Shown: positions 1,906 through 27,855 of the stretch, piece after piece
How positions within the stretch are numbered: the first letter of the stretch is position 1
Layout of the letters: every line of letters starts with the position of its first letter
NCBI GenBank assembly: GCA_948144175.1
Contig: CANXME010002068.1
Coordinates: 5,227,001-5,291,000 of the forward strand
Direction of reading: 5' to 3'
DNA from: Closterium sp. NIES-65
Taxonomy: Eukaryota > Streptophyta > Zygnematophyceae > Desmidiales > Closteriaceae
DNA length: 64,000 bases
Program-made: the position numbers and the translations under genes
Notes under the pieces: generated by a model
Database searches by the model: none
Told to the model about the DNA's origin: nothing
The model's input: only the letters and a program-made list of their open reading frames with translations

Positions 1906-2052
1906 AAAGGGGGGGGGGTTGTATGTTAAGGGAGTCGTAAGGTCTTTCGCACCATACTGACAATAGCTACCTCCTTGCATGCCTGTAAGTCCTATATTTG
2001 TGTATTAATGAAAGGGCCGTTCGAGAGATGACAGGATAGACCGTGCACGTAC
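1906..2052. other. LINE 3' flank and receptor-gene intron, no gene seen
   Basis: This short stretch follows the LINE stop codon with a G tract and ends at the predicted splice donor of the receptor transmembrane exon. The 3' end of the LINE is not marked by a tail or by a target-site duplication that I can recognise. Confidence 0.4.
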
Positions 2053-2223
2053 AGAGAGGCGCAGGGGGAGTGGGAGGCTTGGCCTTGCGTGCACGCGAGT
2101 AGAGCACGGCGAGGACGGCAATGACTGTGAGCAGCAGCAGCAACACCAGCACTATGACCACTATCACCCACATCGCCAGCCCGCCCCCACCACTATCAGC
2201 TGCGTTTGAGGACGAGTTGGAGG
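2053..2223 (-). CDS. Receptor exon: transmembrane helix
   Basis: The exon opens after a CTCACAG acceptor in phase 1 and ends before a GTACGTGC donor, also phase 1. It encodes a Ser/Asn/Gly-rich stalk ([14 protein letters not shown]), a hydrophobic helix of about 24 residues beginning [16 protein letters not shown], and a basic stop-transfer YSRARKAK followed by a proline-rich juxtamembrane piece. This is a type I topology with the cytoplasmic side at the C-terminus. The phase fits the donor of the exon at 11461, which lies 9.2 kb away with a retrotransposon between them. Confidence 0.7.
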
Positions 2224-5200
2224 CTGTGAGGGGGGGGAGAGGGAGGGAAAGGGGAAGGGAGAAGGGAGAGAGAGGGGAAGGGAGAAGGAAAGGGAGAGAG
2301 GCAGGGAGAGAGGCAGAGAAATGGGTGAGGCATCGATGGAGGGAGAAGCGGAGGAAAGAGGGTGCGAGAGAGACAGGAAGGTGAAGGGAGAGGGGCAAGT
2401 GAGAGAGGGGAAAAAGAACAATTGGATGCAAAGACTTGGGACAGGATGTCGCACCCTCTCCCAGTGGATCCGCCCTCCCGTCCTTCTCTTGCTCTGTGCC
2501 CTCTAATCCTTACTTCTCTCCCTGCTTCCCCGCTTCCTTGTGCACACCTCCTCCTCGTCTCTTATAGGTAATGATACTCTCTGGACCCCTGTCATGCCCC
2601 CTCACGACCTGTTCTGCGCCCCTGCCCACAGGTCGTGATGCTGTCGCCTTAGCAGTATTGGAGATATGGTCCTTCACCCTCTTCCCCTGAGAGTCTTCCA
2701 AAAGAACCACCCCTGATTCCCGTAGCTCTCGCACTTTCCACTTCGTTTTGCTCAGCCCGCACTCCAGTGTGTCCTTCCGCCGCTCTCTCAGGTACACCTC
2801 ATCCCCTACTTGCACCCCTCTGTCCTTTCTCACGACTTCCTTCCCCCCTTGTCTCCTCTGACTGTACCGGCGAGCATCTCTCATCTGTGCTACCTCCAGG
2901 TTCTCCAGTGCAGCCGGCATGATCGACCGGAGATACTTCGCCCTGGCCGCTGCGACAGCCGCCCAGGTGTTGGGGTCTTCGTCTCCTACCGCCTCTCTTA
3001 AGACCTTAGGAGCTCCCACGGGTAGCAGGGGCTCCTTTCCGAACAGCAGCTGGTAAGGAGAGTAGCTTTTCAACGCTTGCTGTTTGCTGAAACGGTACCC
3101 TGCTGCCACCCACGGTAATTTCACGTCCCAATCCCGCCTCTCTTCTTCCTCACAATACTTCCTCAGGCCTTTCTTCAACGTCTGAATCATTCTCTCTGTC
3201 AGCCCGTCCGCTTGTGGATGATACCGTGAGGTCCTTCTGTGCACTATACCTACTTCCTTCAGTAATGCCTCAAACTCTCCCGCGAACTCTGTCCCTTGAT
3301 CAGTCAATACTTCTCCACACGCCCCAAACCTGCATAGCACCTGCTGCACGAAAGCCTCTGCCACCGATGCGGCTGTCTTACGCGACAGAGCCGCCACTTC
3401 AATCCATTTGCTAGTGTGCTCTATCATCACCAGGATAAACTGCTTTCCTCTCCTGGACAAGGGCAGCTCCCCCGCCAAGTCCAACGACCATCGGTAGCCG
3501 ATGCTCCCAATAGGCAGCGACTGTAGTTCTGCCTTACTCCTTTCCAGCACCGCCCGATTCCTACTGCAGGGCTCGCATTCTGCTACCTCCCTTTTTACCT
3601 GCCCTCTCATTCCTGGCCACCAATACATGGTTTGCAGCAGCTGGGTGGTCCTCTCCACGGCGTAGTGCCCGAACTTCGTATGGATCTGCAGTATCAAATC
3701 TCTCCTCTCTCCAGGTCTGGGTACGATTCTCCATCCATCCTCCGTTACCAACTGCAGCTGGTCATCCTGCCACCTGTAGTGCACGCCCCTAGCTCTCACC
3801 CTTTCCGGCACTTCCAGCCCCTCTGGTCCCACTCCTTGCACCCAGTCTAGTACTGGTTTATCCTCCCAAATCTCTGCGCACCCCTTCTCAGCATCCCTTC
3901 TCCTCCTCCACCCCTCTTTCTCCGCGGCTACTGCCGAGTATACCAGTGCTGCCTCGGGGGTCACTCCTTCCTTACTCGGTACCGCTGGCCCCTGCCTCGA
4001 CAGGCCGTCGACATGCTGGAGCGTCTTCCCTGGGCGGTGTCTGACTTCGAAATCGAATTCTTGCAACCGCATTGCCCATCTTGCATTCCTTCCCCTCAGC
4101 GTTTGATTAGTCATCAGCCACAAGAGGGGCTGGTGATCTGTGATGAGGGTGAACTTTCTCCCTTGGAGGTAGGGTCTAAACAACTCCACTGCCCACACAG
4201 CTGCCAGCCCCTCTCCTTCGTAGGAGCTGTAGTTGCTTTCTGCTGGGCTGCAGGAACGACTGGCGTATGCCACCACCCGCTCCACTCCCTCTTCCAATTG
4301 GCACAGCACCGCTCCCAACCCCCCGCTACTCCAGTCAGTGTATAGCAGGAAGGGTTCATCTTGTCTTGGCAGCCGCAGTACAGGGGCGGTTTTTACTGCC
4401 TCCTTCAGCACCCTCCAGGCAGCTTCTTGCTCCTCCTTCCACTCCCAGGCGACATCCTCCCTCAGCAGCAAATTCAGTGCTTTCGCCGTCCTGCTGAAGT
4501 TTGGGATGAATTTCCTGTAGTAGTTTAAGAACCCTAGCTGCGCTCTCAGCATGCTTCGGTCGGTCGGCTGCTGGAGGCGGTCCACTACTTCCACCTTGGC
4601 TTGCTGGACCGTCATTCCGCCCTCTCCCACTTGGAACCCGAGATACCCTACCGTTCGTACCCCTAAGGTGCACTTGCCGGGATGGCAGGTCAGCCCAGCC
4701 GCCTCTATGGCCTTCAGTGTTTTGGCCACATCCTCCACATGCTGCTCCCCATCAGGGCTGTAGATGATCACATCATCTATGTAGCAGAGGGCGCACGGCA
4801 ATTCCTGAAGCACCTGATCCATGACCCTCTGGAACCGGGCTGACGCATTCTTCAAACCGAAGGGCATGTAATTCCATTCATAAAGTTTGTCGGGACCATG
4901 AAAGGCCGTCTTGTGCTTATCTGCTTCTCGGATAGGTATCTGATTGAAGCCTTGTCTCAGGTCCAGCGTGGTATATACCCGTCCTTTCGACAACTCATCA
5001 AAGAGCTCTTCAACCACCGGCATGGGATAGCGGTCGCTCTTGGTCACCCTATTCAATCCCCTGTAATCACCGCACATCCGCCTTGATATCGTCTCTCCTG
5101 TTAGGTCCTTGCGAGCTGCCACCACGGTTGCTGCCGCGTACTCGGAGGTGGATTCCCGGATCAATCCCGCTTCTAACAGCTCTTTGCACTTCTCCTCCGC

Positions 5201-8200
5201 AATGTCTCGGTCTCCAGGACTCATCCGTCTCCGCCTCTGGTACACTGGCTCTTGGCTCTGCAGCTCTATGTCCATCACTGCCCGATTACACTTGCCCAAC
5301 TCCTTCACAGAAAATGCAAATGCCCCTCTGGCTGCCCCCAACACTCTCCTCATCTTTTCCTTCTGTCCCTCGTTAAGACCGTCCCCCATTTGCCACTCCC
5401 CGGCTCTGTCCTGTGCTCCCTCCACCGGTGCCTCCTCCCTTCCTTCTACTTCTCCTTCAGTGTTCTCTTTGCTTCTCTCCGCCCTTGCTCCCTTTGCCAT
5501 CAATACCATCCCTTGACGGTTGAACTGGTCCTCTTCTCGCGCTCTCTCCTCCCTCTGATATACTGCCGATTGCCTCCATTGAGCCGCCACCTCCATCGCC
5601 ATCTCCGGTTCCGTGTCCGTCATCTCTATGAAGTCCCTGTACCTCTGCAGCATGAGCAGCTGCGCTCTCAGCGTTTCATGCCTCTTTTCAGCGCGATACA
5701 GCAACCATCCCAAGGCATGCTGGTCAATAGCTCCTCCCAGCGCCTGCCGCCTCACTTCTTCTGACACCCCTTCCGCCGCCGTCGCGTTTCGCAGATAGCC
5801 CATGGCTCTCTCACGTTCCACTGCTAGTGGCTCCTCCCACTCCCCCGTCGCCAGCACCTGTACCATTCCCGGTCCCGGTTGATCCCCTTGCATGCTAAAG
5901 GCATAGCTCCCCGGTGTCGACACCAGAGTTGGCCAGGCCTGCCGTGGTGCCCCCACCTCGTTACACGGGTACTGCGTCCTTATGTCCGGGCTGACCACTG
6001 GGGCCACCCTCCTCCCCGGTTCCAGGATATCCTGCACCAGCAGGGGTAATGGCCGGCGCATGCGACCCAACTGGTCCCGCAGCACTGGTTCTGGGACCAT
6101 GTTCTGCCAATACCGCCGGATCCGATGTGCCCGAGCACCCATCTGTGCTGCGTCCCATGCTACCCCATGGCCCAGCTCCCGTGTGACCGCCCGGTGCGCC
6201 TCCTTCACTAAGCTCCTTTCATCATCCGCCAGGTCAAGATTCTCCACCACGTACGAGAACGGGCCTTGCCTTCGCTTTATTAGCTTCATCACCCGAATTA
6301 ATTCTTGGAATAGAGCCGTCCTGGGGTCTTCTAGTCCTCTCCCTCTTCCTGCTCTGGACAGGCCTTGACACTCCCATCCCGCCACCAGCAGGTCCACTTG
6401 CCCCCAGCTTGCTACCACCTCCTCGGTCACCTCCGTCACATCGCTCATCCTTTCCGCCTCCAACCGGGCCTGCTCGACTACGTCTCTGGATAGCTTGTCT
6501 GGGAATCGCTCGTGCAGTATCATCGCGTGATGCATCGCCATCCTCCTGACCTCTGGGTTCTTCTCTACGTAGGTCCATCGCTCCACCACCATGCCCAGAC
6601 GGACACAGGCGGCCAGCCCCGGGCCGACACCCCCGAACAATTCCACCAGCCGTACCGGCCGATTGAAAGTTTCAAAGTCATAGGCTGGTTCGGCCAGTCC
6701 TCTGGCCTCCCTCAGTTCCTCCACCCTCGCCCCAGCCGCTTCCTCCATTCTTCGTCGACTGGCTGCCCTTTCCAGGTACACTCCCGCATCTTCCCATCGC
6801 TGCTCGGGCACCCGCTGGTGATGCGGCTCTCGATACTCCACCCTTCCTCGCAGAAAGCGCGCCGGTAGGACTGCTCCCTCCTCTCCAGCACGGGTCGCTT
6901 CTGAATCCCAATACAGTGGCTGGTAGGTGACCCTCTCCGCCCACGTATCCACCACTGCCCCCACCTTGTAGAGGAGCTCCATACCGAGCAAGAGGTCATA
7001 GTCTTCCGAGTCGGATACCAGACAGTGTACTCGGATTCTGGTCTCTTCGGCCCTTCCTGGCGCCAACACCACTTCTTGGGGTCGGATGGTTCTCGGTAGC
7101 CATGTTCCATCCCCTCCTTCCGCCGTTTGAATCCTTACTCCTTCCGGCGTCACATTCTCGGCCCGATGCAGTCCCAGCCTTTCGGCCAGTCGCCTTCCCA
7201 CCAGCACTTGGGACGCCCCGGTATCAATAATTGTTGTGCCCGGGTATTTCCCTTCCACTGCTACCGTCCCCTCCAGCGCTTCCACCACGCAAGGACGAGC
7301 CGCCATCCTCTCAAACGGGTGCCTCCTGGGCCCCATTCGGGCCACCGCCCGCTGCACTGCTTCTTCCGCTGCTCCTGCCGCCTCCTCTACGGCCTCGTCT
7401 ACTGTTGCCCGCGGTCCCCTCCTTACTGTCGCCGTGCCCCTTCGGCCGTCTGCGGCACCACTACGCAGGCCCAGGTCTTCCCTCTCCCTCCCCGGGTTTG
7501 CCGCCATGAAGATGGGCTCCGGTCCTTCTTCGTCGGACTCTTCCGCGTACCTTGCGACGTGGACTGGCTTTTCCTCTTCTGCCATCGTGTCCTCTTCCTC
7601 TGCCCGAAGCCTCCTCAGCTCCTCTTCCAGCTCCTCGATCCTTCCTCTCCTTCCCCCTCGACCCTTCTGCTCGCGTTGCTTAGTGTAGCAATTGTCAGCC
7701 TGATGCCCCTTTCTCTGGCAATAGGAGCAGGTTTGCAGCTTGGGGCAGTCCCTCTTGAAGTGCCCCGGCTCCCGGCACTTGTAGCAGACCGGCTCTTCTC
7801 CAGGAGAGTGGGCCGCGCTGCGAGGCTTCCGCGTCCGACTCCTAGAGGCTCGATCCCTTTCCTGGTCTTCCTCTTCCGCCTCCTCCCCAGCCAGTAGGGC
7901 CCCTCCCCAGCCGACTCCCCTGCGCTCTCTCTCCCTGGGCGGCTTCTCGGTCTTCCTCCCCAGGTCATAGAGGCTCAGGGACTGCTCGTGTCGCCATGCG
8001 ATTTCATACGCCTGTCGCAGCGTGGCGTTGGGACCCAGGTCGTATGTCCGATCCCTCACGGTCCGTGCTAGCTCTCCGGCCAGGCCGTCCAAAAATTTGG
8101 CTACTATAATACGCGGTTCGCTGCAGCCGATGTCCTCCGCCAGTTGATGCACTCGCCGATAATAGCCCAGGAGAGACTCTCGTGAACCTCGTCTCAACTG

Positions 8201-11200
8201 GTCGAACTCCCTCATCCTGGCCGGCGTTTGCGTGGGGAAGTGCGCCGCCAATTCTTGCAGGAAGCGCTCCGTCGGGTCCCGTAAGCGGATGGGCTTCCCT
8301 TCTTCGTCCCGTAGCAGTCGGCCCTCCTCGTCTCGCTCTTCCTCCTGCAGCAGCGGGTCCCTAATCTCCAGGTAAAACGCTTCCGCCTCCCCCGCCAGCG
8401 TGTTCCCCAAAGATCTGAAGAAGTGCCGTAAATCCAGGCCGTCCATCTCCCATCCGTATTTCTCGTTCCGCACGTGCATCGCGTAGGTCTTCACTCTCGG
8501 TCCCGACTCTTGATCTCCACTGAAGCGACTCGGAACCTCCACCTTAGGGAGGCTGGTGTATCGGTAGCGTGACCCCTCCTCCCACAGCGAGCGTCTTGAA
8601 TTCCCGCTTCCGGATGGCGTCATCTGCCCTCCCCTTCCTCCTTCTGATCTGGCAACTGGCGCAGCGATGCCCCTCCCCGCCACCGTCGCCTGTTCTTCTG
8701 ACGGCGACAGCTCTCCCTGGGTTCTCTCGGCGCGCATCGCAAATCGTCCCGATCCGCGGGGGGTCATACCACCTCCGCGTCGTTCTTCCCGCCGGCCCTT
8801 GTCCTCGGCGTCATTCCGGGCAGTTACTCGCTCGGGATCGGATCTCTCCCCCGGGCTTCCTTCCACTTCGTTCCCCGCCGGAACTCCTTCCTTCTCCGGT
8901 GGTTCTCCCATTCCGGACAGCTTGGCACCACTACGTAGTGACATGCCCGCCATGACTTTTGTTTGTAAAGAAGCCCTCGACGCGAGTGGCTAGTTTCCTT
9001 CCCTAGGCACAAATGGCCGCACTAGTTTGGCTTCTCCGACGTGGATCTAGCAGTTGCTCAGCTTGACGACAGATCACAACTGAATCACAAGCTTTCCCAC
9101 AATTACGAGAAGACAAACAAAAGTGAATTGGTGTCCTTGCTGTGCTAGTTTTGGCTTCCTGTCACCCCTCGTGAATCTGTGCCTTGGGGTCTGCCAACTA
9201 CCTCTCGCACCGCCCAACCCTTGGGCTCCTTTCCATGCATGCGACTCGGGCAAGCCTCGTCACCCCTGTCCCCTTTCCGCTTCACCGGTGGCCCTTGCCA
9301 GGTCAGCCGTCGTCCCGTCCTCATTTCGAGTGGCCCCGCCTCGATTCTTCTATCCCTGCCACAATTCTAATATCACCACAAAACCCCCCCCCCCCTTACC
9401 CGTACACTCTACAGTACAATTTATAACAACAATACAACAATACTACTTCCCTTACGATTTACCCAACCATACTCACCTTAGGAGCTGTCTCATGAACTTT
9501 TGTGCACTCATTCGCAAGAGTCATGCGACAAGGACAGGGATGGAAGAGGGGACACGGAGTGAAGAGGAGAACACTAAAAACGCATCAAGCAAAGTGACTT
9601 TTGAGTCGACTCAAAAGTCACCTCCTAAGGATGGAAGCCGATGGCGAACACTAAAAACGCATCAAGCGAAGTGACTTTTGAGTCGACTCAAAAGTCACCT
9701 CCTAAGGATGGAAGCCGATGGCGAACACTAAAAACGCATCAAGCAGAACCGTCTCAGAATTCGAGAGTGGTGCAAGAAAATGGCACAAGCGTGTAGTGGA
9801 GAGTAAGGGGGAAAGAAGGGAGCGAGAAGGCAGCGAGATGGCGATACGAAGACATGAGGACATGGATGGGCGGGGATGCAGGGGAAAGGCAGCATAGAGA
9901 TGTGTGGATCGATAGATGCAGGGATGGGAGGGTGGGTGAGAAGAGAGAGAGGCTTACAGGCTGATGAATCTGCAGGGAAAGGGCATGCAGACGACAGCAG
10001 GCACAGGAGCAGCACAAGGGGACGAGAGAATGAGGATGAGAAGAGGTTGTTGGGTATTGCATAGGGAATGATAGACGTTGAGGGGCATAGATGGGTGGGA
10101 GATGACAGAGAGGCGATCATGGGTGATAAAAGGTGGTGCGAAGCAGCAGCATGCGATGCAATGCAATGCAATGGGGTGGAAACGGGTGCTTGCATTGCAT
10201 GCCAGGCAGAGGGCAGCCGCGTCGAGAGAAGAAGCTGATGCAAGGAACAAGCAACCCAATAAGACGAACGGGGCAAGTGATACCTTACAATAGCGGCTAT
10301 GCAGTGCAGTGCAGTGCATACCAGGGGGTGGTGGTGGGCCAGGAGGTGGATCGCTGGGGCCATAGAGTGTGGAGGACGCAGAGGCTGGTGGCGGCAGACA
10401 GGGACGAGGGGTGAGAGGGATGAGGGGGAGGGGGGAAAGGGGAAAGAGGAGGGGGTACAGAGGAGGGGGGAGGGACGAGCGGTGCGGGAGGGGTGGATGT
10501 GAGGGGTGAAAAGTGAGAGGGGTGAGGAGGCAGGAAGGTGGGGGGGTGCAAGGGAGCACAGAGGAAGGCAAGGTGAGTGGATGATTGGATGTGCAAGGAG
10601 AGGTGAAGAAACTAGAACACGAAAGCAAGCGACTGCAGTGAGGATCGAGGCGAGAAGCAGGATGGTGAGGGGTGAGGGGCGAAAAGTGCGAGGGGTGAAG
10701 TGGGGAGGGAAGGCGAGAGGGGGAGGGATGCAAGGAAGCGAGGCAAGGTGAGGGGATGGGCAAGCAATAACAGATGCCCGAGAAAACGACGGTTGACAAG
10801 ACGAGAGGGTTGAGAGGAGAGGAGGGCGAAGAAAGGGAGGACGGGAAGGGGGGAGGGTAGAAAAACGGAGAGAGTGAACATCAGGGCGGACAACATGAGT
10901 TTAGGGTTTGAATTTTTTCCCACCCCCTTTTTTTACCCACTGAAAAATCGCAAGACAGGCCCCTCTGCGTCCAGACCCATTAACAGCATCCCATCCCATC
11001 AAATCCCACCTATCCCCGTCACATCCCCATCCCCATCCGCTCCCCCTTCTCCCATCCCATCCCAACCCCACCCGCCCCATCGCATCCCTTCTCCACATCC
11101 CTACGCCCATCCCATCCCCTTCCTCCACCCTCCCTCTTCCCCCCCCCCCAATCAGCACGCACAGATGAGCACATAGGGGCCGAAGTCGGCGCCGAGCAGC

Positions 11201-14200
11201 TGGTTGTACTTGGAGCCGAGGAAGAGCTGGTTGAGGATGTTGGACTCCACCACCACTCCCACTGCCCCCTGAGCTGCTGCTGCCCTGCTCCCGCCCCTCT
11301 AGTCGACGCAAGCAAAAGCCACCTCCCAACTCCCCACATCCCCCCAAACCCACCCCACCCCTCCTCTCCCCCATCCCACCCCTCCTCTCTCCCATTTCCC
11401 CCAATCCCAATCTTTCCGCCCTCCCTCACCCCCCCTTTCCCCCGCGCAAGCGGCACGCACAGATGAGCACATAGGGGCCGAAGTCGGCGCCAAGCAGCTG
11501 GTTGTACTTGGAGCCGAGGAAGAGCTGGTTGAGGATGTTGGACTCCACGGCCACGTCCCACTGCCCGCCCTGCGGCGTGAAGAAGTGCAGCTCCAACACC
11601 TGCCCTGTGCTCGCCTGCAACGCTGACGCCACCCACACCTGGAGGGGAGGGAACACGGGAGAGAGGGAACAGGGGGGCGTGGGAGTGCCGGGGAAACGGG
11701 GGACGTGGGGGAGTGGAAGGAGGTGGTGGGGAACGGGGAGGGAGAGGTAGGCGGGAGATGGAGAAGAGGTGGGTGGGAGAAAGTCGGAGGGAGGGAGCAC
11801 AGGGGTTGGTTCCATTTCAAGGGAGCAAAGAAGTGCAGCTTTGGAGCTCCAGGGATCTGCTTCGTGCTCGCCTGCTCCACCTGGAGTCGAGGCCACCTAT
11901 ACCTGGGGGAAAACAAGGGAGAGGGCGAACGAGGGAGCAGCAGGGAGGCAGGGAGGTGGGTTCAGTTCAGGTGGGAAATGGTAGAGTTGGAAGGGAGCCA
12001 GAGAGAGGGAGGCAGCCGGCAGGGCAACAACTTGGTTCATTCATGAATCACATAAAAAGCTCAGCCCCAAAGCCACCCCCACACCCACACCCACACCCAC
12101 ACCCACACCCACGCCATCCCCACACCCACACCCACACCCCCTCCCACACCCACACCCACACCCACACCCACGCCCACGCCCACGCCCACGCCCACAACCG
12201 CAGCGGCGCACCTGCGACTGCTCGAGCAGCGGCGCCCCGGAGATATAATTCCTCAGCCGGTCCGCGAGCTCGGCGCGCAGCTTATTCGCAATGTTGCTCG
12301 TGAACACCGAGAAGGGCGCGGACGTGAGCAGCAGCACCACCGACAGATAATCCGAGCACTTGCACGTGCCATTATCAGAGTAGATGGCGGTGTTAGCAGC
12401 CTGTGTCTCCTTGTTGCGGCATGTGAGCCCCGGGCAGATCTCCGGGGGCGTCCATTCCATGGTGGCGTTGCTGATGGCTGCGGAGCAGACTGAGAGCAGC
12501 TGGTTCTCGGGCTCCCTGCACCACGGGTTGCCTGCCAGCCTGGGTACGGCCGCACATGGGTGTTGGGCATGTGGGTTGGTTGGGTGGGAGATCGGGTGTG
12601 GAGTAAGGAGGGATGTTGGGCAGTTGGTTGAGAGGGACGCACAAGGGATGGGTGGTGGACTTGCAAGAAGAATGGAGAGCAGGGGAGATGTGTGTGTGGG
12701 GTGGGGGGGGGGGGAGGGGGGATCGGGGGGGTGTACGAAGAGGGGAGGAGATATTGATGAAAGAGAAAAATCAAGGGATGTGAAGGAGCAGAGGGGGACA
12801 AATGCAGGTAGTAAGAGGGGAGTGCAGCAGGAGTTGCAAGTACGGGCCCTTCGCTTTCCCTCAACTTGCCTCACTGCCACCTCAGTTCCACGGTCCACCT
12901 GGACCCACCTGAGCTCTAGCAAAACTCACCTCAGCTCCACCTGAGCCCGGTTCCTCAACTCCTGCGACACAGGCCCACTGATCATGTTGTTGACGAGCGA
13001 CAAAAAGACAAGCGATGCCGCCCGAGGGAAGTCCGGCACACCCCCTGAGATGTTGTTCCGTGCCATGTCCCTGGATTTTGTGGTCAGCACGGGGATGGAG
13101 AGGGAGGGGGAGGGTGCATGGCGGAGGTAGCAGAAGCGAACAACAAAGAGGGGGATGGAGGGGCAGGGGAGTGGGGGGAGGGGAAGAGGAGAAGAGGGGG
13201 GATGGAGAGGAATGGAGAGGGAGGGAGCGTGACGGATGGATGTGGTGAGAGGAAGAGATTGAATTACAAGAGGTGAGAGAGTGACAAACAGACTAAAGGC
13301 AAACAGTGGTCAACGCTGGAAGGCCATCCAAACCAAAGACCGAGAAATAGTGACCACTGAACATGGGAGCGACGGAGGGTGATAGCGAGTGTGTGTCAGA
13401 GAGAGTGGAACTGTAGGGAGAGTGGTGGGGAGGGGGGTTGAGGGTTGGGAGGAGGGTGAGCTAACAGTGACTGTAGGTTGACGAGGCGAGAGAGGCTGTT
13501 AGGCAGCGACCCTGAGAAGCTGTTGCCGTGCATCTCCCTGTGTGATGATTCCATACACAGACACAGACATACGCATGCACACACATGCACAAGCACACGC
13601 ACGCATGCACGCACACACATACAACCACGAGAATGGGATAGAGACGATGATGAGAAGGGGTATGTGAGAGGCGAGAGCATAGGAAACGGAAGATAAGGCG
13701 AGGAGTGAGACATGGGGCACGGGACGAGGCAGGGAAGCAAACGGCTAGCAGGAAGGTCAGGAGGTATTCAATCAACAAGAATGGGGGACAGAGGGAGCGG
13801 ATGGAACAGAGGGAGCAGATGGAGCAGAGGGAGCAGATGGAAGAACGTACAGAGACACGATGCTTGGTGCGAAGGTGGGGGGAAGGGACCCTGAGAACTG
13901 GTTGGCTACGATGTCCCTGCACGCACAGAGAGGAGGGGCAGGCGGGTCGAGCAGCGCACACCAGTAAGGGACGGGGTGAGGGGGGTAGAGGCAGAGCAGC
14001 AGACATGCAGAGCAGCAGACATGCAGAGCAGCAGACACCAAAGATGATGATAGCACAAGGGGCACAACACAACAAGTGAGATGATTGGGGCCAGGCTGGG
14101 CAACGAGCACGGAGCCAGCCAGGAAAAAGGGCAGGGCTATGCAGGAAAGGCAAAAAAGGGAGCGGCACTTACAGTTTGCGCAGCTTGGTGAGGGCTCCGA

Positions 14201-14800
14201 AGTTAGGAAGACGACCTGTGAAGCTGTTGAATCCGAACGAGCTGGTAGGGGTGGGGAATGGTGGGGAGAAGGGGAGGGAAAGAGGGGAGAGAAGAGGGGG
14301 AGGGAAGGGGCGGGGAGGAAATGGCACGTGTTGGAAGTGGGGCGATAGCTCTTGTCGGATGGCTGCTGCTTTGAGTGGATATGTGAATGTGCATGACGGA
14401 TTGGTAACTATTACTGTCAGACAAACGGAGGAAGGAAGAGTGAGACATGAGTGGAGAGGAGGCAGAGAGATGGAAAAGGGGGAGAAGGGATGGAGGGAGC
14501 GGCGAGAGGTAAGGATTGAAGAGGACTTGATTGGGGGAGGGAGAAGGACTTAAGTGAGTGCACTTTAGAGGGGACGTACAGTTTTTGTGAGATTGTGCAT
14601 ACAGGTTTGTGAGATTGTGCATACAGGTTTGTGAGATTGTGCATACAGGTTTGTGAGATTGTGCCATTTCAAGCGGCGTACAGGTATGTGAGGTTATCCA
14701 TTCTGAAGTAGGATACTGGCAGGGGGCCGACTAGAGCGTTGGAGCTCACATCGCTACAGGCATGGGGAGACGCCATGGGGGAAGACAAGGCATGCACACA

Positions 14801-14897
<97 letters not shown>

Positions 14898-17800
14898 GAC
14901 AGAGGAGATCTGCTAAAAGGCAATGGCACTGTTAAGCCATGTTGCTTGGAAACGCTTGTGTTTAGTGTTTGGAGCTTACACACCTCCAGGCGTTTCCGGT
15001 CATTCATAATGGATATAACTGGCATTGCTACAAAGAACGACAAAGAGTTGCGTGAATGAGAAGGGAAAAGGAAAGGGCAGCAAGCAAAAGCAACCGATGG
15101 TAGAAGCAAGCAAACGGGCAGAACGGGGAATAGGGAGAAACAAGAGTTAAACGAGAGGGGAACAAGGAGAACAGAGTGTGAGAGGGAAAATAAGAAAAGA
15201 GTGTGAACGAAGAGAGGGCACGTGGAGAAAGAGCAGGAGGAAGTGAGGAGGACGCACAGAAAAGAGAGTTGAGGAGCGAGAGAACTGGGAACAGAGCCGT
15301 CCAGGGAGTTAGCCTTCAGCTTGCTGTGGGGCGACGAGAAGAAAAGAAAACAGAAGCGAAGGAAAGAGAAGCAAAAAGAAGGAACAGAATCAGCTAGTGA
15401 AGAATTTTGAAACGGCTAAAGAGCAAAGACGGGTGCAGCGCAGAGGGGTGCAATGGGTCCAATAGAGTGTAGCGGGGTGCAGTGGGGTGCAATACAACAG
15501 TCAGACTGAGGCGCATGCACACGGGATGGAGGAAGCGGCATATGCCAAGTGAGACTATGACAAGTGGTGTAACAGGGGGGCCCAGGCAGCACCCACCCAG
15601 TACACTGCATGCAGGTGATGTGACTGGTGTGTCTGGTGTGACTGTGCCGCATGCTTTGGAATCAGATCAATTCGGATTTCACTCACAGAATGGAGAGCTT
15701 GGGCATTGTGGCCAATGCTGGCAAGAGACCACCTTGAATCTTATTGTGGCTCAGATCCCTGCTCACACACGGGAGCACACGGGAGCACACGAGAGCATAT
15801 GAGTACAGTGGAGTGTGTGGAAAGGAGTGCACAGAAGTGCACATAAGCCCAAACCAGTATAGACGAGTGCACACAGGTCCGTCCCAGTCGTGCACACAGA
15901 GCTGTATGCTCCTCGTCTACTCCCTCCTTCCCATCTGTCTTTGTTTTCTGCTTTTGGTAATACAAAACAGACGCGCTTTCTCTTTTTCCACACGCGATCC
16001 TCGAAAGCTTGGTTTCTCCTGTAAGGTCCGTCCATGATAAGGCTGGTCGGAAGAGGCAAGCACATCTTGCGACCGACCGCGTTCACAAGCCCTTGTGAGA
16101 TGTGCACAAAGAGAGGGAAACGAGCCCGCCGACAGAGAAACAGGCACGCCAGCCACACTCACAGAGAGGCTCAAGCGGGGGAGGTGGGTGCGCCTGAGGA
16201 GGCAGGGCAGGCACAGGAGAGGCGCAGAGAACCTACAGAGTGGTGAGCGAAGAGAGGTACGGGAGGGCCGCGGACAGGCTGGATGAAAAGGAGTTGTAAG
16301 AGAGATCGCTGGTGGACGGGGGAAAGCCGGTAGAAGAGGCAGGTCGGTGGGGTGAAGGCGAGGGGTGCGGTCGTGGGCACAGGGGGATGGGTGGGCGGGG
16401 AGTGTGGGGAAGATGAGGGTGTAGGAGGTAGGGAAGGGGGTTGGTTAGGGAGACGAGGAGGTGGTGTGGGAAGGAGAGAGTAGGGGAGGGCATGAGAAAT
16501 TTCATATCCACAGGACCACAGTTAGATGGGTTCTGAAGGGAAATGGATGCCAAGATACAACATTCGGGAAGTGGGCAAGAGGCAGAGAGAGAAAGCCGCT
16601 TAGATGCTTGGGCTGTAGAGAGTCGTTTACTAGGAAGAGGAAAAAAAATGCTTACACCTGCACATCAGATCAAATCAAATTTGTTCAGATCAGATAAAAA
16701 AGCAAACCAGAGTGAGCCCAAACCAGAGCGCATCGAGCAGCGGCAACAGCTAGCTAGGTACATGGGGCATGGGTAAGTGTGATTGCATGTTCGTGGCACA
16801 GTCGCCTACACGTGCACAAAAACGGTAATATGCGAAAAAAATGTACCGTGGGGTTCAAGGGGACAGGGGGCGAAGGACAAAGGGCAGGGTGCGGAGGGCA
16901 AGAGCCAGGGGGCAGAGGGCAAGGGCAGGGGGAACGGGGCACGGGGCAAAGGGCACTGGAGGAGAAAAAGCAACGGTCAGGGGGCACGACGCAGGGAGCA
17001 GGGAGAGAGCAGGACTGACAGGAGCTGCAGGGACTGCATGGCACTGATGCTGGTAGGCAGCATGCCAGACAGGCTGTTGACACTCGCGTCCCTGCTCAGA
17101 CAGGCAGGGCGGACGCGGAAGAAAAGCACAGGAGAATGGGGAAGAATAATGGGAGAGAATGGGAGAGAATAAGCGAACAGGAGAATGAAGAGTGGGGGGG
17201 AATAGAAACGAGGGGGTACGAGGGGAGGTAAGAGGCAGCTGGATGAAAGGATGGAAAGCTTGAGGACTTGGACAAGACGGAAGCAGGCAATGACCCTTAA
17301 CCACCGCACGGGTAAACACCGAAACCTTGCTAATAGATCTCAGCCAACAAGTGTGCTTGCATGCACTCACAGGTGCTGCAGTGACTCACAGGTGCTGCAG
17401 TGACTCACAGGTGCTGCAGTGACTCACAGGTGCTGCAGTGACTCACAGGTGCTGCAGTGACTCACAGGTGCTTCAGCGTGGTCATCTCCCCCAGGGATGA
17501 GGGCAGGGAGCCGTTCAGATTGTTCTGACTCACATCCCTGATGGCACGGCATGGCAGCAACGTGAGGGGAGGGAGGGGTATTGTCACAGAGCATGGGGGG
17601 GTAAAGGCAGGAGTGGGGGAGAGGTGGACGAGGAGAGAAACGGATGAAGGTAAAGGTGAAAATAGTTTGACCGGAAACAGGAAAAAGAGATTGCAACAAG
17701 AGTGGGCGGATGGGGGGGTAGAGATCTGAGTGAAGGGAGAGTGCATGTGGATGATGCACGTGCAGAGAGCAGGGGAAGGGGGGCGGAGAGAACGCAAAGG

Positions 17801-19524
17801 GAAAGGAAAGGAAAAGTGCACGGCGCATGGTGATTGGTGCATGGTGCAGGGCGCATGGTGCACGTTGCACGTTGCGTGTCACATTGCGCATGGTGCACGG
17901 TTCATAGTGCATGCCGCATGTCGCAGAATGCATGGTGAATGATGCACGGTCAACTCGTACAGGAAGGTGAGGGCCTTGAGGCCGCTGATGGTATCTGGCA
18001 GGCTGCCAGTCAAGCTGTTGCTGGACAGCTGCCTGCTTGGCTCCATGCGAGGAGGCGGCGGGGAGAAGGGAGAGGAGAGAGGGGAGTAGACAGGAGCAGG
18101 TGAGTGTGTAGGAATGGGATAGGTGCAAGCAGGGAATGGGGCAAGGGGGCTGAGAAGGGGGAGGGGGGCGATGGGGAAGGGGAGGGGGGGTGAATGGTTC
18201 GTTCTTTGTTGGGGGATGTGGGGTGAATGGGGCAAGAATGAGGAGGTATGACAGAGAGGGTGATCAACGAGAGAGTGTGATAGGCAAAGGGTGTGTAAAA
18301 GTGGAGAAGGAGAGTGTGACATGGGGAGAGAGAACGAGCAAGAGGGGGCGAGAAGGCGTGCAAAGCTGGAGAAAGAGAGTGCGCAAGAGGGGGGAGAGCG
18401 AGCGTGTGCACGAGCGAGAGGAAGCATGTGCAAGAGCAGGAGGGAGGGAGTGCAAGTGGTGGGGTAGCAAGCAGGTAGCTCACAGCATCCTGAGCGATGT
18501 GAGGCCTGATATGGTGGACGGGATGCTGTCACTGAAGTTGTTGGCGTGTAGCTTCCTGCACTCGCACCATCAGATCAGGTCACCCACGCACACACACAAA
18601 GAAACAATCCACACCACCACAGAGGATAGGAGTATTATGCAGCTTGCATTGCATTGCATTATACGCGCCTCCCATCAGGCACCTCCCTCCCTGCACGTGC
18701 ACATCATAATGTCGCATGTTAGTTTACTGGGCTGAGCTATCCAAGCCTTGACCATGCTGTACCTCACACAACCCAGCCCAACCCAACCCAGCCAGATTGG
18801 CAACATCACAAGATGGTACTTGGGCTGATTTTCCTGCCCAGAGCATGGATGCATGGGTGTCTGTGTGGATGGGTGTACGTGCACATTACTTCTTATGTGC
18901 ACATGGGTGCATGGGTGTGTGTATGTATGGATGTGCAGTACCATGTGTGCACGGCATGGGTGCATGCATGGGTGCATGGGTGCAACCAGGGTGTGAGAGT
19001 GAGTGTGAGCGTGAGCGTGAGAGTGCTTACAAGCTGAAAAGGGAGCGGCAGCCGCCAATGGAGGGAGGGATGGGACCCACAAACTTGTTGTAGAACGCCA
19101 GACTGCCATTGTGCCATACATGGATATCCAGCCCAGCCATACAGACACGGCACAACACGTCACGGTGGAACGGTGTAACTCTTGAGATTATTCAAAAGCA
19201 ACACCACCATACGGACGGTCACATTGAAAGGGATGGCAGCAACAGTGATGGTGACGGTGAGATGAGAAAGGTGCGTGACTGAAAGGTGAGACCAGAGACA
19301 CCCAAGAACCAGCGCTGGTGCAAAGAGATGCAGACGACAGTGTATACATAAAGACTAAGACAAAAGGTCATGCAAACTGAGACAAAGGTGCGGGCAAGGT
19401 TACAGAGTGAGAAGTCCCGTGAGGCCTCCTAGATTGTCGGGAAGGCTGCCAGTGAAACGGTTCATGCTGATGTCACTGCCAGGCAGCAGCAGCAGCAGCA
19501 GACAGCAGCGGCGGCGGCAGCAGC

Positions 19525-19580
<56 letters not shown>

Positions 19581-22500
19581 TATCAGTAGCAACAGACAGC
19601 ACATGGAGGAACAAAATAGAACAGGTAAAAGGACATGAGAGAAAGTGCACAGAAGCAAGAGCAGGCGAGGAAGGGCAAGTGAGAGAAAACGAGACGGATC
19701 TGCATGGCATAGTAATGGAAGGGAGAAACAGCATGGAAGAAAGAAACACGAGCGAGGAGGTGGATGAAGGTCAGGGCGATGGGTGGTTGAGGAAAGGGGG
19801 TGGAGGGCGGGCAACAGACAGAAAAGCTGGATAAAATCCGCCAATCCCTTCACATGTCGGCACATTCCCCATCCCCCATGCCCCCCTCCCCACCACACTA
19901 CTGGCACCCCCGCCCTTATGTCATGTGACTCATGTCTCCCTCTACTGCTTCTGCTGCTGCCTGCTACGCCTGCAGCCTAACACCTGCTCCAGCCTAGGAC
20001 CTGTTGACACCCACTGCAGCCATGCATCCTGCACTACCAGCGCACAGCGCATCCCGCAAGGTATAAAGTTGCTTCACCTGCTGCCCTTTGAACCAAAGGG
20101 CCACGTAATTGCACCCGAAGTGTCAGGACGACGTTCCTCTCCTCTCACCCCCTCTCCTCAGCCCCTCTCCTCCTAGCCCCTCTTCTCTCACCCTCTCTCC
20201 TCTCAACCCCTCTTCTCTCACCCTCTCTCCTCTCACCCCCTCTTCTCTCAACCCCTCCCCTCTGACCCCCTCTCCTCTCAACCCCTCCCCTCTGACCCCC
20301 TCTCCTCTCAACCCCTCCCCTCTCACCCCCTCTCCTCTCAACCCCTCTCCTCTCACCCCCTCACCCCCCCTCCTCTCAACCCCTCTCCTTTCACCCCCTT
20401 TCCTCTCACCCCCTTTCCTCTCTTCTCACCCCCACTCTTCCCGCCCATGCACTCAGCCACTCTCCTCTCCACCGCTCTGAACCGCTGCTCACATGTCACT
20501 GGCAGAGATAAGCGCGCCGAGCTCTGAGGGGATGGAGCCCGACAGCTCGTTGTTGCTCAGCGTGCTGCCGCCCCCATGCACGTGGCAACACAGGAGTGGG
20601 GGGGTTGGGGGGGGGAGAGCGGGGGACGGGGGTGGGAGGGGGGAGGGGAAAGAGGCAAAAAAGGGGACATGTCCGTTGGAGCATAAGAGGAGGGCACTTA
20701 GGGCAGATGGGAGAGGGGAGGAGTTGGGGGAGGGGGGAGGGGGGAGGTTGTGCTGTGTTGTGACGTGATGTGTCATGCTGTGGAGTGCCCTGACGTGTCG
20801 TGACGTGTTGTGCCGTGGCATGGCCTGGGATGGCATGGGATGGCATGGCATGACTCACAGGTACTTGAGCTTGGTGAGTGCACCCACTTGCGGGAAGAGC
20901 GGCCCTGACAGACGGTTGCTCTGTACGTTGCTGCACACACGCATGGCGGCGGCGAGAGGGAGATGAACAAGTGCGGAGGAATGGGAGAGTCGCAGGGGGG
21001 TACGAGGAGAGATGGAGGGGGATTGGGAAAGATGAGGAGAGATGAATCAGATGGGAAGAGTCGGGTGTGTGATGCAGGGAAGGGATGTTGGGAAGAGAGG
21101 TGTCTTGTGAATTGAGCAAGTTCGTGGTTTGGGCTACCAGCAGAAACGACAGGTGCTCTGTGCAGCTGCTTTGAGACTCAAGACGGTTTGAGACTCAATG
21201 CGGCTTGAGACTCTCAAGACAGGGCTTACATCTTGTTGACGTTTTGCAGAGACGACATGGCTTGAGGGAGAGAGCCCTCCAGAGAGTTGAGCTCAAGACT
21301 CCTGGTGCATGCACACGGGCATGGGACAGGCCCGAGCGAGAGGGGGGGACGAAGAAGAGGGGAGAGAGAACAAACGGCAGAGGAAGGGCAATCAATGAGA
21401 CGAGCGGTGGACTTGGAGGAGATTGAAGGCTGCAGGGGAAGACGCATCACAGCCCCTCAGCACAGCACGCAGATGAGAAATGACCATCTAACAAGGGATG
21501 GTGCAAGGTGAACGGATCAAGACATGGGGGGCCGTTTGACCGATGCGCATGGAATGGATGAAAGGTAGATGCAGCGAGGAAGAAAAGCGAAGAGCAGGAG
21601 GGAGGATGGGAGGGTGGGAGAGGGGGAGCGGCGAGAGGGTGATGGCTAAGGTAATGGCAAGGCCGACAGTGTTAGTGAGTGACGTGGTGCGTAAGCTGAT
21701 GGTGTGCTTGAAGGAGAGAAGAGGAGTGGAGTGGCGAAAAGTGGAGTGGAGAGGAGTGGAGTGGAGTGGAGAGAAGTGGAGTGGAGTGGAGAGAAGCGGG
21801 GGGCAATCAACAACTGGCGCGTTCAGTAGTGGCATGGTAAATGAGAGGTGTGCGTACAGCATCTCAAGCGAGGAGAGGGCACCAATGGACGACGGAATGG
21901 AGCCCGAGAGCTGGTTCTGATTCAGAACCCTGCAGGATGTAAGCCAGAGGCGTATAAGCCAGGATGCAGCGTGGGGGAGAGGGGCGGGGAGGGGTGGGGT
22001 TGGATGGCGGGGTGTGACGGGGGGACGGGGAAGATGGGGTTTGAGTTGGAGAAAGAGAGTGGGATTAGTGTGTGCCAGCAGAGTGAGAGTTGGACGGAGG
22101 AAGAGATGCAACGGTGCAACAGCAGAGAGCAGGGGTGAAGTGAGGTCCAGTTGGAGGTTGTAGGAGTGGTTGCCAAGAGGAAGGATGAGGTACAGTGGAA
22201 GGGAAGATGTGTGCGTGAGAGATTAGGTGAACGGGGGAAGGATGGAGAGGGAAAGAGGAGGAGGAGGAGGAGGAGGAGGAGGAGGAGGAGGAGGAGGAGG
22301 AGGAGGAGGAGGAGGAGGAGGAGGAGGAGGAGGAGGAGGAGGAGGAGGAGGAGGAGGAGCAGGAGGAGCAGGAGGAGGAAGAGGAGGAGCAGGAGGAGCA
22401 GGAGGAGCAGGAGGAGGGACGGAAGAAGGAAGAGGTGAGGAGAGGAGCGCATACAGGTTCTTGAGTGAGGAAAGGCCTCCAAGCACATCTGGGATGGAGC

Positions 22501-24538
22501 CCACGAGCTGATTCTCCGACAGGTCCCTGGCAGGGCGAAGAGAAAGGTGGCAGCCAAGTGGGGAAGCGGAGAGTGGGAAAGAGCGGGAAGAAGAGAAGAG
22601 GAGAGGAGAGGAGAGGAGAGAAGAGGAGCGTGAGCACAGAAGTGATGAGGGACAGGTGGGGGGGGGGGGGGGGGGGGGAGTGGGGAAGAGAAAGAGGAGA
22701 AGATCAGCAGGGTGAGAGGAAAAGAGTGGGAGCGCAGGGATGGGAGGCTGAAGGAGAAGCAAGCAGGCTGATAAAGGCAACACGCACCAAAGCCTGCAGG
22801 GCAGCACTTGGAAGGGAGACATTACGGCATGAGAGTGTAGCAGTGTGACTGGGTGGCAGAGTGCAGCGGAGTGGCAGTATGGTGCAGCAGAGTGGCAGGT
22901 GGGTATGTGTGGTGCAGTGGAGGGGACGTACAGGCCAGTGAGCTTGGAGAGGGATCCAATGGCCGGTGGGATGTCGCCAGAGAAGTTGTTCTGCCGCAGC
23001 TGCCTGCTCGCTCACAGCACAGCACAGCGGCGCAGCGCACGATGGAGAGACGGTAGGGGGGCGCGGTGACAGGAGGAGGAAGAGGAGGGAGTTGAGGAGG
23101 AGGAGCGTGGTTGCAAAATGGAAAAGCGGATGCACCATACAGCAGCAGCAGGCACGTACAGGAAGGGCAGGCACGTACAGGAAGGGCAGGCACGTACAGG
23201 AATTGCAGGCACGTACAGGAATTGCAGGCACGTACAGGAATTGCAGGTCAGAGAGAGAGTCAATGGCAGTGGGGAGTGGGCCTGTCAAGTTGTTGGTGCT
23301 CAGATCGCTGGAATGGGTGGCAGTGCACGGAAGGAGGGGGAGGGGAAACGACGAAAAGGAGGGCGGGGATGGAGGGGTGAGGGGAGGGAAGGAAGAAGCG
23401 AGGGAATGAGGAGAGTGGGAGTGAGAGAGGAGAAGTGCAGAGGTGACAAGCTGGTGAGCAGACGTGGAAAGAGCATGTGAGATTGTTGGAACTCTGATGG
23501 TTAAGATCGTGCATGCTGCAAAAGAAGGGATTTTCGTAGTGGGATATGCACACACATAAAGGCAGACACGACACGGGATGGGATGGAGCAAGTCAACAAG
23601 GGTTAGAACATGAAGGGATGCGGAGCAGCGGCATGCATGCATACATGTAGGTGAGTGTGACGAGGGTGGCGACGGCCGAAGGGATGCTGCCGTTGAGTGG
23701 CGGCTGTTGGCTGCCCAACGATCTGCACCACATGGCACCCCAGAGCACCCCAGAGCACCGCATGGCACCCCATGGAACCGCACAACATTGAACATGGACA
23801 GAGACGGCAGGGCATGGGCGCAGTTGAGGAGGGAGGGAGAGATGTGAGGACAAATAGGAGGGGATGGGTCAATACGCAGCGGCAACGGAGGGCGGAAAAG
23901 AGGAAAGACCAACCTCCCTTGCTCACCTACCCATCCGCTCGCCTATCTTAGTGCCCATTGATCCACTACACACCCAACTCAAGCACACACACACTACCTG
24001 CATAGGATGTGCCCATAAGCGCCAAGCTTAAGTCTCTTCGTCAGTCACCATACGCCACATGCCGTCTGTGCCTGCCTCACATGCAACTCCGCCTTCCACC
24101 GCTCCAATATTCGTTACCAGTTCCTACGAAGAACCAGTCACGTGCACAAAATTGCCAGCGCGTGCTCTGAACCAGCACTTGCCGATATGAGGCGACCCCA
24201 CAAGCACTCACGTGCATACTCGCGACCACCCTTACTCTATGATGCTCACGACCATACGTTCCACCCGCGCGCTCAAGACACGACCATCCCGTCTCACATG
24301 CTCACGACCATTCTTTTCACTCACATGCTCACGACCATTCTTTTCACTCACATGCTCACGACCATCCACGTGGACGTGTCACACGTGACGCCCACCCATG
24401 CCCCGCAGTCATCCTCGCTGTTCCATGACGTCAGCACCTGCCCTTTGGGGTCCAGGCTCGTCTTGAGCTCCAATAATGCCGGCACTGCATAGGCACAGGC
24501 ACAGGCACAGACACAGGCACAGGCACAGGCACAGGCAG

Positions 24539-27798: not shown

Positions 27799-27855
27799 GC
27801 ACATACAGGAAGGGCTGGCACGTACAGGAAGGGCAGGCACGTACAGGAAGGGCAG
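27799..27855. repeat. Three copies of the receptor-gene 19-bp minisatellite, joined to a copia element
   Basis: GGCACGTACAGGAAGGGCA units run straight into the copia integrase-region sequence at about 27856. The same unit makes up the minisatellite at 23146-23250, with close to 40 bases shared exactly. It stands where the 5' part of the copia element would be expected. Confidence 0.85.

What the first reader, a model, noticed from the sequence alone, without database searches (positions are those of the whole stretch)
2510..8953. Whole-looking gypsy retrotransposon with its own DNA cytosine methyltransferase
The sequence shows one unbroken 2147-codon frame with DNMT motifs I, IV, VI, VIII and IX/X in order between protease and RT. 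A transposon that may methylate DNA could influence its own silencing or protect its cDNA. From memory, DNMT-bearing gypsy elements were reported by de Mendoza and colleagues (2018) in a charophyte alga and dinoflagellates; whether this is the same lineage or an independent capture is open. It lies in an intron of an expressed-type receptor gene, same strand.
Basis: partly seen in the sequence, partly recalled or inferred. Interest (0 to 1): 0.88.

Follow-up and report, generated by a model that had tools for sequence, protein, structure and literature searches.

The report
Algal retrotransposon carrying a DNA methyltransferase
A jumping element in a green alga, probably Closterium, carries what looks like its own DNA-methylating enzyme inside the protein it uses to copy itself; it belongs to the same group of elements as one already described in another alga, and that group also turns up in more distant green algae.

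Summary
Window 2510-8953 (minus strand) is one unbroken 2147-codon frame: gag zinc knuckle, protease, C5-cytosine methyltransferase, RT, RNase H, integrase. The methyltransferase (residues 755-1088) has its motifs in order and ranks DNMT3 first among solved structures. A 98% identical copy is annotated in Closterium sp. NIES-54 and a partial one at 98-99% in NIES-64, so the host is very probably Closterium. The known relative is KnitGypsy-Dnmt3 of Klebsormidium nitens (de Mendoza 2018); a K. nitens protein (P0100) falls in the same clade in the RT-RNaseH-integrase and the methyltransferase trees, so a separate capture is unlikely. New here: chlorophyte members (Cymbomonas; partial domains in Haematococcus); two positions of the enzyme in Pol, probably one relocation; and Glu instead of Pro before the catalytic Cys in 56 of 67 sequences. 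Against "whole-looking": no LTRs or other terminal repeats were found around this copy. Enzyme activity, and methylation of its own cDNA, are inferred. New member of a known kind.

The parts
2510..8953 (-). Single Gag-Pol frame, 2147 codons, ATG to stop
   Evidence: start methionine shared with NIES-64 protein P0058
7739..7789 (-). Gag CCHC zinc knuckle (residues 389-405)
   Evidence: Pfam PF00098
6971..7264 (-). Aspartyl protease (residues 564-661; DTG triplet in the sequence)
   Evidence: Pfam PF13975; sequence
5690..6691 (-). Dnmt3-like C5-cytosine methyltransferase domain (residues 755-1088), motifs I, IV, VI, VIII, IX, X in standard order
   Evidence: Pfam PF00145; family profile; best PDB hits DNMT3A/3B; motif table
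6365..6373 (-). Motif IV codons Glu-Cys-Gln (residues 861-863), Glu in place of Pro
4604..5203 (-). Reverse transcriptase (profile 1251-1450; Pfam 1292-1442)
4055..4360 (-). RNase H (residues 1532-1633)
   Evidence: Pfam PF17917
3554..3712 (-). Integrase zinc-binding domain (residues 1748-1800)
   Evidence: Pfam PF17921
3215..3496 (-). Integrase core (residues 1820-1913)
   Evidence: Pfam PF00665
8954..9525 (-). Probable 5' non-coding part of the element; the limit is only inferred from a change towards pyrimidine-rich intron
   Evidence: no repeat partner found
2430..2509 (-). Probable 3' non-coding part, purine-rich, about 80 nt; no LTR found after it
2052..2221 (-). Host exon encoding a transmembrane segment, downstream of the insertion on the same strand
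13057..23294 (-). Host gene stretch with 11 LRR motifs, upstream of the insertion

Best explanation
This is the intact coding region of a Ty3/gypsy retrotransposon of a Closterium alga whose Gag-Pol polyprotein includes a Dnmt3-like C5-cytosine methyltransferase between protease and reverse transcriptase. It belongs to a clade of methyltransferase-bearing gypsy elements that includes a K. nitens element and elements of chlorophyte algae. Shown: the frame, the domains, clade membership on the sampled trees, conserved catalytic residues. Inferred, in order of decreasing confidence: (1) the polyprotein is cut by its protease, so the methyltransferase travels in the particle with RT and integrase (about 0.7); (2) it methylates DNA, most likely the element's own new cDNA (about 0.4 for cDNA as main target); (3) the benefit is that the new copy arrives already marked like host DNA, which protects the cDNA or damps its expression so that the host tolerates it (about 0.3).
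For: Domain order and intact frame. Profile and single-sequence PDB searches rank DNMT3A/3B first (5e-21; 6e-9), ahead of DRM2 and M.HhaI; no chain named DNMT1 among 57 and 50 hits. Catalytic Cys in 67 of 67 family sequences, motif VI Glu in 66 of 67, a motif VIII Arg in 63 of 63 with letters there. A search with RT to integrase alone, blind to the methyltransferase, listed 61 proteins at E up to 1e-130 (7999 candidates scored), of which 45 carry it. Methyltransferase and RT-RNaseH-integrase distances agree across 43 elements (r 0.80; 0 of 2000 permutations as high). 31 protein clusters named Closterium carry it (7, 22, 2 more). SymbioDIRS-Dnmt3 enzymes methylate CG de novo in yeast (PMC5890265, passages).
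Against: The K. nitens gypsy methyltransferase gave no methylation in yeast, which its authors call inconclusive. The window enzyme has Glu for the Pro next to the catalytic Cys, which could change or abolish activity. No terminal repeats were found, so this copy may be unable to transpose. Phage methyltransferase profiles (PHROGs) match all 7 members scanned, the window at 1.4e-12, and the protein search with A1 listed no protein named as a eukaryotic Dnmt3 among 46 (capped at 8000 candidates and limited in length), so the Dnmt3 label rests on the PDB ranking and on kinship with the published K. nitens element. No Ka/Ks: no second DNA copy was available. No structure model could be made.
Confidence: 0.75

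Rival explanations
1. The domain has lost ordinary methyltransferase activity (Glu in the catalytic motif) and is kept as a DNA- or chromatin-binding module, for instance to steer integration.
For: Glu for Pro in 56 of 67 family sequences. Many relatives have a PHD finger after integrase (22 of the 25 rows with the second domain order), so chromatin reading may be a theme in the clade; the window element has none.
Against: Catalytic Cys in 67 of 67 and motif VI Glu in 66 of 67; a mere binding module would not need them. Pro and Glu rows are interspersed on the RT tree (at least 5 changes among 42 scored rows), which suggests that both forms work.
Confidence: 0.2
2. The enzyme methylates RNA, such as the genomic RNA or the tRNA primer, rather than DNA.
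For: DNMT2, a relative, methylates tRNA (recalled); PMC5890265 raises an RNA role for the LINE-borne enzymes (passage).
Against: Closest solved structures are DNMT3A/3B; DNMT2 scores far lower.
Confidence: 0.1
3. Separate capture in the Closterium lineage, unrelated to the K. nitens event.
For: The published view is of an acquisition in the K. nitens lineage (section 9 read); host Dnmt3 genes of green algae were not sampled here.
Against: Closterium and K. nitens elements lie in one supported clade in both trees (RT part 100/100, methyltransferase part 99/98), with the same domain order.
Confidence: 0.1
4. Two captures from closely related sources, one for each domain order (enzyme before RT; enzyme between RNase H and integrase).
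For: In the methyltransferase tree the two orders form separate groups, though the enzyme-before-RT group has only 52/84 support.
Against: In the RT tree the enzyme-before-RT elements are paraphyletic and the other order is nested (100/100), with K. nitens next to it at 97/89; the methyltransferases are one group against the 7 outgroup rows (99/98).
Confidence: 0.2
5. The enzyme came from a phage- or virus-type C5-methyltransferase, not from a host Dnmt3 gene.
For: PHROGs profiles match 7 of 7 members, best 2.1e-30. Outside the elements, the best-scoring protein of the A1 search is an unnamed 384-aa one (P0055, 1.1e-17) and the one named eukaryotic protein is plant P0059 at 3.8e-8.
Against: PDB ranking puts DNMT3A/3B far above M.HhaI and M.HaeIII. 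The published tree puts the K. nitens relative with Dnmt3 (text only).
Confidence: 0.2

Closest known systems
KnitGypsy-Dnmt3 of Klebsormidium nitens (de Mendoza et al. 2018, PMC5890265)
   Same: Gypsy domain set; unrearranged Dnmt3-like enzyme in the Pol frame; K. nitens protein P0100 has the same order PR-DNMT-RT-RH-INT and lies in the same clade.
   Different: 46.6% identity in RT-RH-INT and 41.3% in DNMT. P0100 has Pro-Cys-Gln, the window Glu-Cys-Gln. The paper describes DIRS-like repeats; none were found here. P0100's gene model lacks part of the domain between motifs I and IV. That P0100 is one of the paper's copies is my inference from species and architecture.
SymbioDIRS-Dnmt3 and SymbioLINE-Dnmt of Symbiodinium (same paper)
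   Same: Retrotransposons that carry a C5-methyltransferase; SymbioDIRS carries a Dnmt3-type one in Pol (passages).
   Different: DIRS and LINE classes; DIRS uses a tyrosine recombinase, this element an rve-type integrase.
Unnamed, Cymbomonas and Haematococcus elements with order RT-RH-DNMT-INT, mostly with a PHD finger (found here)
   Same: Same clade by RT and by DNMT (Haematococcus in the RT tree only).
   Different: Methyltransferase lies after RNase H; many have a PHD finger after integrase.

Membership tests
Ty3/gypsy lineage (coding region) | Pol order PR, RT, RNase H, integrase | tested here: met
Ty3/gypsy lineage (coding region) | Gag with CCHC zinc knuckle | tested here: met
Complete LTR retrotransposon | Paired long terminal repeats | tested here: not met
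   None found around this copy; it is therefore filed as a gypsy coding region, not as a complete LTR element
Dnmt3-type C5-cytosine methyltransferase | Nearest to DNMT3 rather than DNMT1, DNMT2, DRM or bacterial enzymes | tested here: met
   a ranking of PDB hits, not a full DNMT tree; PHROGs matches noted
Dnmt3-type C5-cytosine methyltransferase | Motif order I-IV-VI-VIII-IX-X, not rearranged as in DRM | tested here: met
Dnmt3-type C5-cytosine methyltransferase | Catalytic Cys in motif IV | tested here: met
   67 of 67
Dnmt3-type C5-cytosine methyltransferase | Pro before that Cys (usual, not defining: both states occur within the clade) | tested here: not met
   Glu in the window and in 56 of 67
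Dnmt3-type C5-cytosine methyltransferase | De novo DNA methylation activity | not testable with these tools
   needs an assay
KnitGypsy-Dnmt3 clade | Same clade as a K. nitens element by RT and by DNMT | tested here: met
KnitGypsy-Dnmt3 clade | DIRS-like structure of the repeats | tested here: inconclusive
   no repeats of either kind found at this copy; other copies' DNA not available
KnitGypsy-Dnmt3 clade | Purifying selection (Ka/Ks) on the DNMT | not testable with these tools
   no second DNA copy; only residue conservation

The most novel reading that the evidence does not exclude
One ancient capture of a Dnmt3-type gene founded a gypsy clade that now spans both branches of the green lineage (Closterium and Klebsormidium; Cymbomonas and Haematococcus), by descent or by transfer between algae. 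Its enzyme moved once within Pol, from before RT to after RNase H, and uses a Glu-Cys-Gln active-site motif, with repeated changes between Glu and Pro, as a working variant of the usual Pro-Cys motif. The K. nitens case would then be one branch of this clade, not an isolated acquisition.
Probability: 0.5. Interest if true: 0.7.

Novelty: new member of a known kind. Interest (0 to 1): 0.55.

Why it matters
It moves methyltransferase-bearing gypsy elements from one published alga to a clade seen in four named genera of green algae, two of them streptophytes, and shows that the enzyme is a lasting part of these elements. That makes the question of what a transposon gains by methylating DNA testable in Closterium strains, of which six have long-read assemblies and two have been crossed (PMC10407611, passages). 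The Glu-Cys-Gln motif is a clear biochemical test case.

Tried and rejected
Chance frame or assembly join: rejected, since relatives share the order and the 98% copy spans gag into RT. Terminal repeats: repeat searches over 1-12000 (direct and inverted; direct with shorter limits) and inverted over 1900-9900 (25 longest of 63 pairs shown), and alignments of the flanks 8951-9560 and 2101-2512 with 100 shuffles each, gave no terminal pair; the best direct match of the flanks (score 27, reached by 2 of 100 shuffles) is a CT-rich stretch. NCBIfam: dcm in 6 of 7 members, the window below its cut-off. No tRNA gene in the window, and no primer-site test was made; the bacterial promoter and terminator scan found nothing and is not informative for this host. 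Host gene: of 8 minus-strand pieces given to Pfam, 1 had an LRR match, just under its cut-off, and 7 had none; PDB searches of 2 pieces gave only low-complexity or chance matches. Rows dropped: methyltransferase rows with under 230 profile positions were left out and so (Haematococcus P0094 and P0095 among them), as was P0058; RT rows under 480 residues or with doubled domains out, outgroups excepted; one long-branch outgroup (P0070, first copy) out; 8 of 15 outgroup rows out; 1 of 43 rows had no readable motif IV residue. The quick methyltransferase tree left the place of K. nitens open. Literature: I found no report of this element family in Closterium, Cymbomonas or Haematococcus; the library lacks most subscription papers, and supplements were not available.
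Full report
What is there. Window 2510-8953, minus strand, is one 2147-codon frame from ATG to stop. Pfam gives zinc knuckle, aspartyl protease, DNA_methylase, RT, RNase H, integrase zinc-binding and integrase core, in that order, each above its cut-off. The methyltransferase covers residues 755-1088 by a profile built from the family and has motifs I, IV, VI, VIII, IX and X in the standard order (motif names recalled).

Whose it is. The best protein match is P0002 of Closterium sp. NIES-54: 98% over 1183 residues, from gag into RT. P0058 of NIES-64 has the same start methionine and is 98-99% identical over residues 1-126 and 341-806. The window is therefore very probably from a Closterium alga (Zygnematophyceae), of the C. 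peracerosum-strigosum-littorale complex studied in PMC10407611; the strain is not determined. Across, 31 protein clusters named Closterium (NIES-53, -54, -64, -67, Naga37s-1) carry the methyltransferase, so the family is multicopy. In one search, 2 of these 31 (P0003, P0009) show all six kinds of domain (zinc knuckle, protease, methyltransferase, RT, RNase H, integrase) in one gene model; the rest are partial. A further NIES-68 protein (P0115) matches in RT without a methyltransferase in its gene model.

What the methyltransferase is. Against all PDB chains the family profile scores DNMT3A, 3B and 3C best (from 5e-21), then 4onj and 4onq (1e-13; a plant DRM, recalled), DRM2 (9e-11), M.HhaI (2e-10) and DNMT2; none of the 57 hits is named DNMT1. 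The window sequence alone also puts DNMT3A first (6e-9; 50 hits). Against this, phage methyltransferase profiles of PHROGs match 7 of 7 members scanned (window 1.4e-12, best member 2.1e-30), and the A1 protein search listed no named eukaryotic Dnmt3 among 46 hits (8000 candidates scored, length limits). So 'Dnmt3-like' rests on the PDB ranking and on kinship with the K. nitens element that the literature files under Dnmt3. Over the 67 family sequences with at least 230 profile positions, the catalytic Cys is in 67 of 67, the motif VI Glu in 66 of 67, a motif VIII Arg in 63 of 63 with letters there, and motif X Gly and Asp in 60 of 60. This speaks for a maintained enzyme. No Ka/Ks could be computed, because no second DNA copy was available.

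An odd active site. The residue before the catalytic Cys, where DNMT3A has Pro in the alignment, is Glu in 56 of 67, Pro in 10 and Asp in 1. In the 12 of 14 outgroup proteins of the A1 search whose motif could be read it is Pro. The K. nitens and both Cymbomonas proteins have Pro. On the RT tree the two states need at least 5 changes among 42 scored rows. That this Pro is nearly invariant in C5-methyltransferases is recalled, not from a call. Whether the Glu form is active is unknown.

Same lineage as K. nitens. A search with residues 1230-1960 (RT to integrase, without the methyltransferase) scored 7999 candidates and listed 61 proteins at E up to 1e-130; 45 of 61 carry the methyltransferase by profile. 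Of the 16 without it, 10 are Cordylochernes and 2 Berkeleyomyces, mostly gene models that hold several elements and so have raised scores; the others are Chara P0120, two unnamed proteins (P0081, P0119; P0081 begins shortly before RT and may have lost the part) and the Closterium NIES-68 model P0115. In the RT-RNaseH-integrase tree of 50 rows the 43 methyltransferase-bearing rows and P0081 form one group against 6 outgroup rows (100/100). K. nitens P0100 is inside, next to the second architecture (97/89). In the methyltransferase tree of 50 rows the 43 element rows are one group against 7 outgroup rows (99/98). Pairwise distances of the two parts agree (r 0.80 over 43 elements; 0 of 2000 permutations as high). 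So an independent capture in Closterium is unlikely. Limits: few gypsy outgroups, no green-algal host Dnmt3 genes in the tree, and a K. nitens gene model that lacks part of the domain.

Two architectures. In elements like the window and K. nitens the methyltransferase lies between protease and RT; in 25 of the 43 common rows it lies between RNase H and integrase, 22 of these 25 with a PHD finger after integrase. The second order is one group in both trees (100/100 and 100/96). In the RT tree the first order is paraphyletic, which points to one relocation from before RT to after RNase H. In the methyltransferase tree the first order is itself one group but weakly (52/84), so two captures from close sources are not excluded. 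Named algae with the second order are Cymbomonas tetramitiformis (P0114, P0117) and Haematococcus lacustris (P0094, P0095), both chlorophytes; the Haematococcus domains match only part of the profile and were too short for the methyltransferase tree.

The surroundings. Upstream on the minus strand lie 11 matches to an LRR pattern of mine, none on the plus strand. Downstream is an exon encoding a transmembrane segment behind an AG acceptor read by eye. Pfam supports this weakly: of 8 host pieces 1 had an LRR match, 19.4 against a cut-off of 20.6 bits; no kinase domain was seen. The element therefore most likely sits in an intron of an LRR receptor-like gene, same strand. Pyrimidine content suggests that intron sequence resumes near 9525 and near 2430, leaving about 570 nt before and 80 nt after the frame. 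No direct or inverted terminal repeats were found. So the coding region is intact, but the element is not shown to be complete. de Mendoza et al. describe DIRS-like repeats for the K. nitens element (figure legend), and other Closterium copies are needed to see what the ends of this family look like.

How it may work. Recalled for gypsy elements in general: Gag-Pol is cut by its protease, and cDNA is made in a particle. From anatomy, the methyltransferase would be released beside RT and integrase. The most likely target is then the element's own cDNA, as de Mendoza et al. proposed for DIRS elements (passage). Only the SymbioDIRS enzymes gave methylation in yeast in that paper; the K. nitens one gave none, which the authors call inconclusive. 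Rivals are an inactive binding module and an RNA methyltransferase.

Literature seen: PMC5890265 (outline, abstract, section 9, passages), PMC12344493 (passages; it refers to the reported elements as LTR Copia and DIRS), PMC10407611 (passages on Closterium genomes; the words LTR, gypsy and methylation do not occur in its main text), PMC9915684 (passages). Others only as search listings. I found no report of this family in Closterium or chlorophytes in ten searches of the open library.

Verdict. A real, well-formed case and a new member of a known kind. It argues against an isolated K. nitens capture and adds an unusual active site. Interest 0.55.

Noticed in passing
window 9566-9745: A 77-bp tandem repeat, about 2.3 copies, both full units holding the same 28-bp palindrome, some 600 bp upstream of the frame; it may belong to the element's 5' part or to the host intron.
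   Followed up: partly
window 4-1905 (+): Open frame of 633 aa with a reverse transcriptase match (RVT_1, E 1e-11) on the strand opposite the receptor gene, probably a non-LTR element piece.
   Followed up: partly
window 27740-28357 (+), open frame 28361-29488 follows: Copia-like pieces: GAG-pre-integrase and integrase core matches, both below their cut-offs.
   Followed up: no
proteins P0013, P0014, P0017-P0019, P0079-P0081, P0084-P0088, P0114, P0117 and others: PHD finger after integrase in many relatives of the window element, in the place where chromoviruses have a chromodomain (recalled); no match in the window element.
   Followed up: partly
protein P0110: An element of the second architecture is labelled as from a Minisyncoccia bacterium MAG, probably eukaryotic DNA binned wrongly.
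   Followed up: no
proteins P0016, P0020: Protease-methyltransferase proteins that end soon after the methyltransferase, suggesting elements with the rest of Pol in a separate frame.
   Followed up: no
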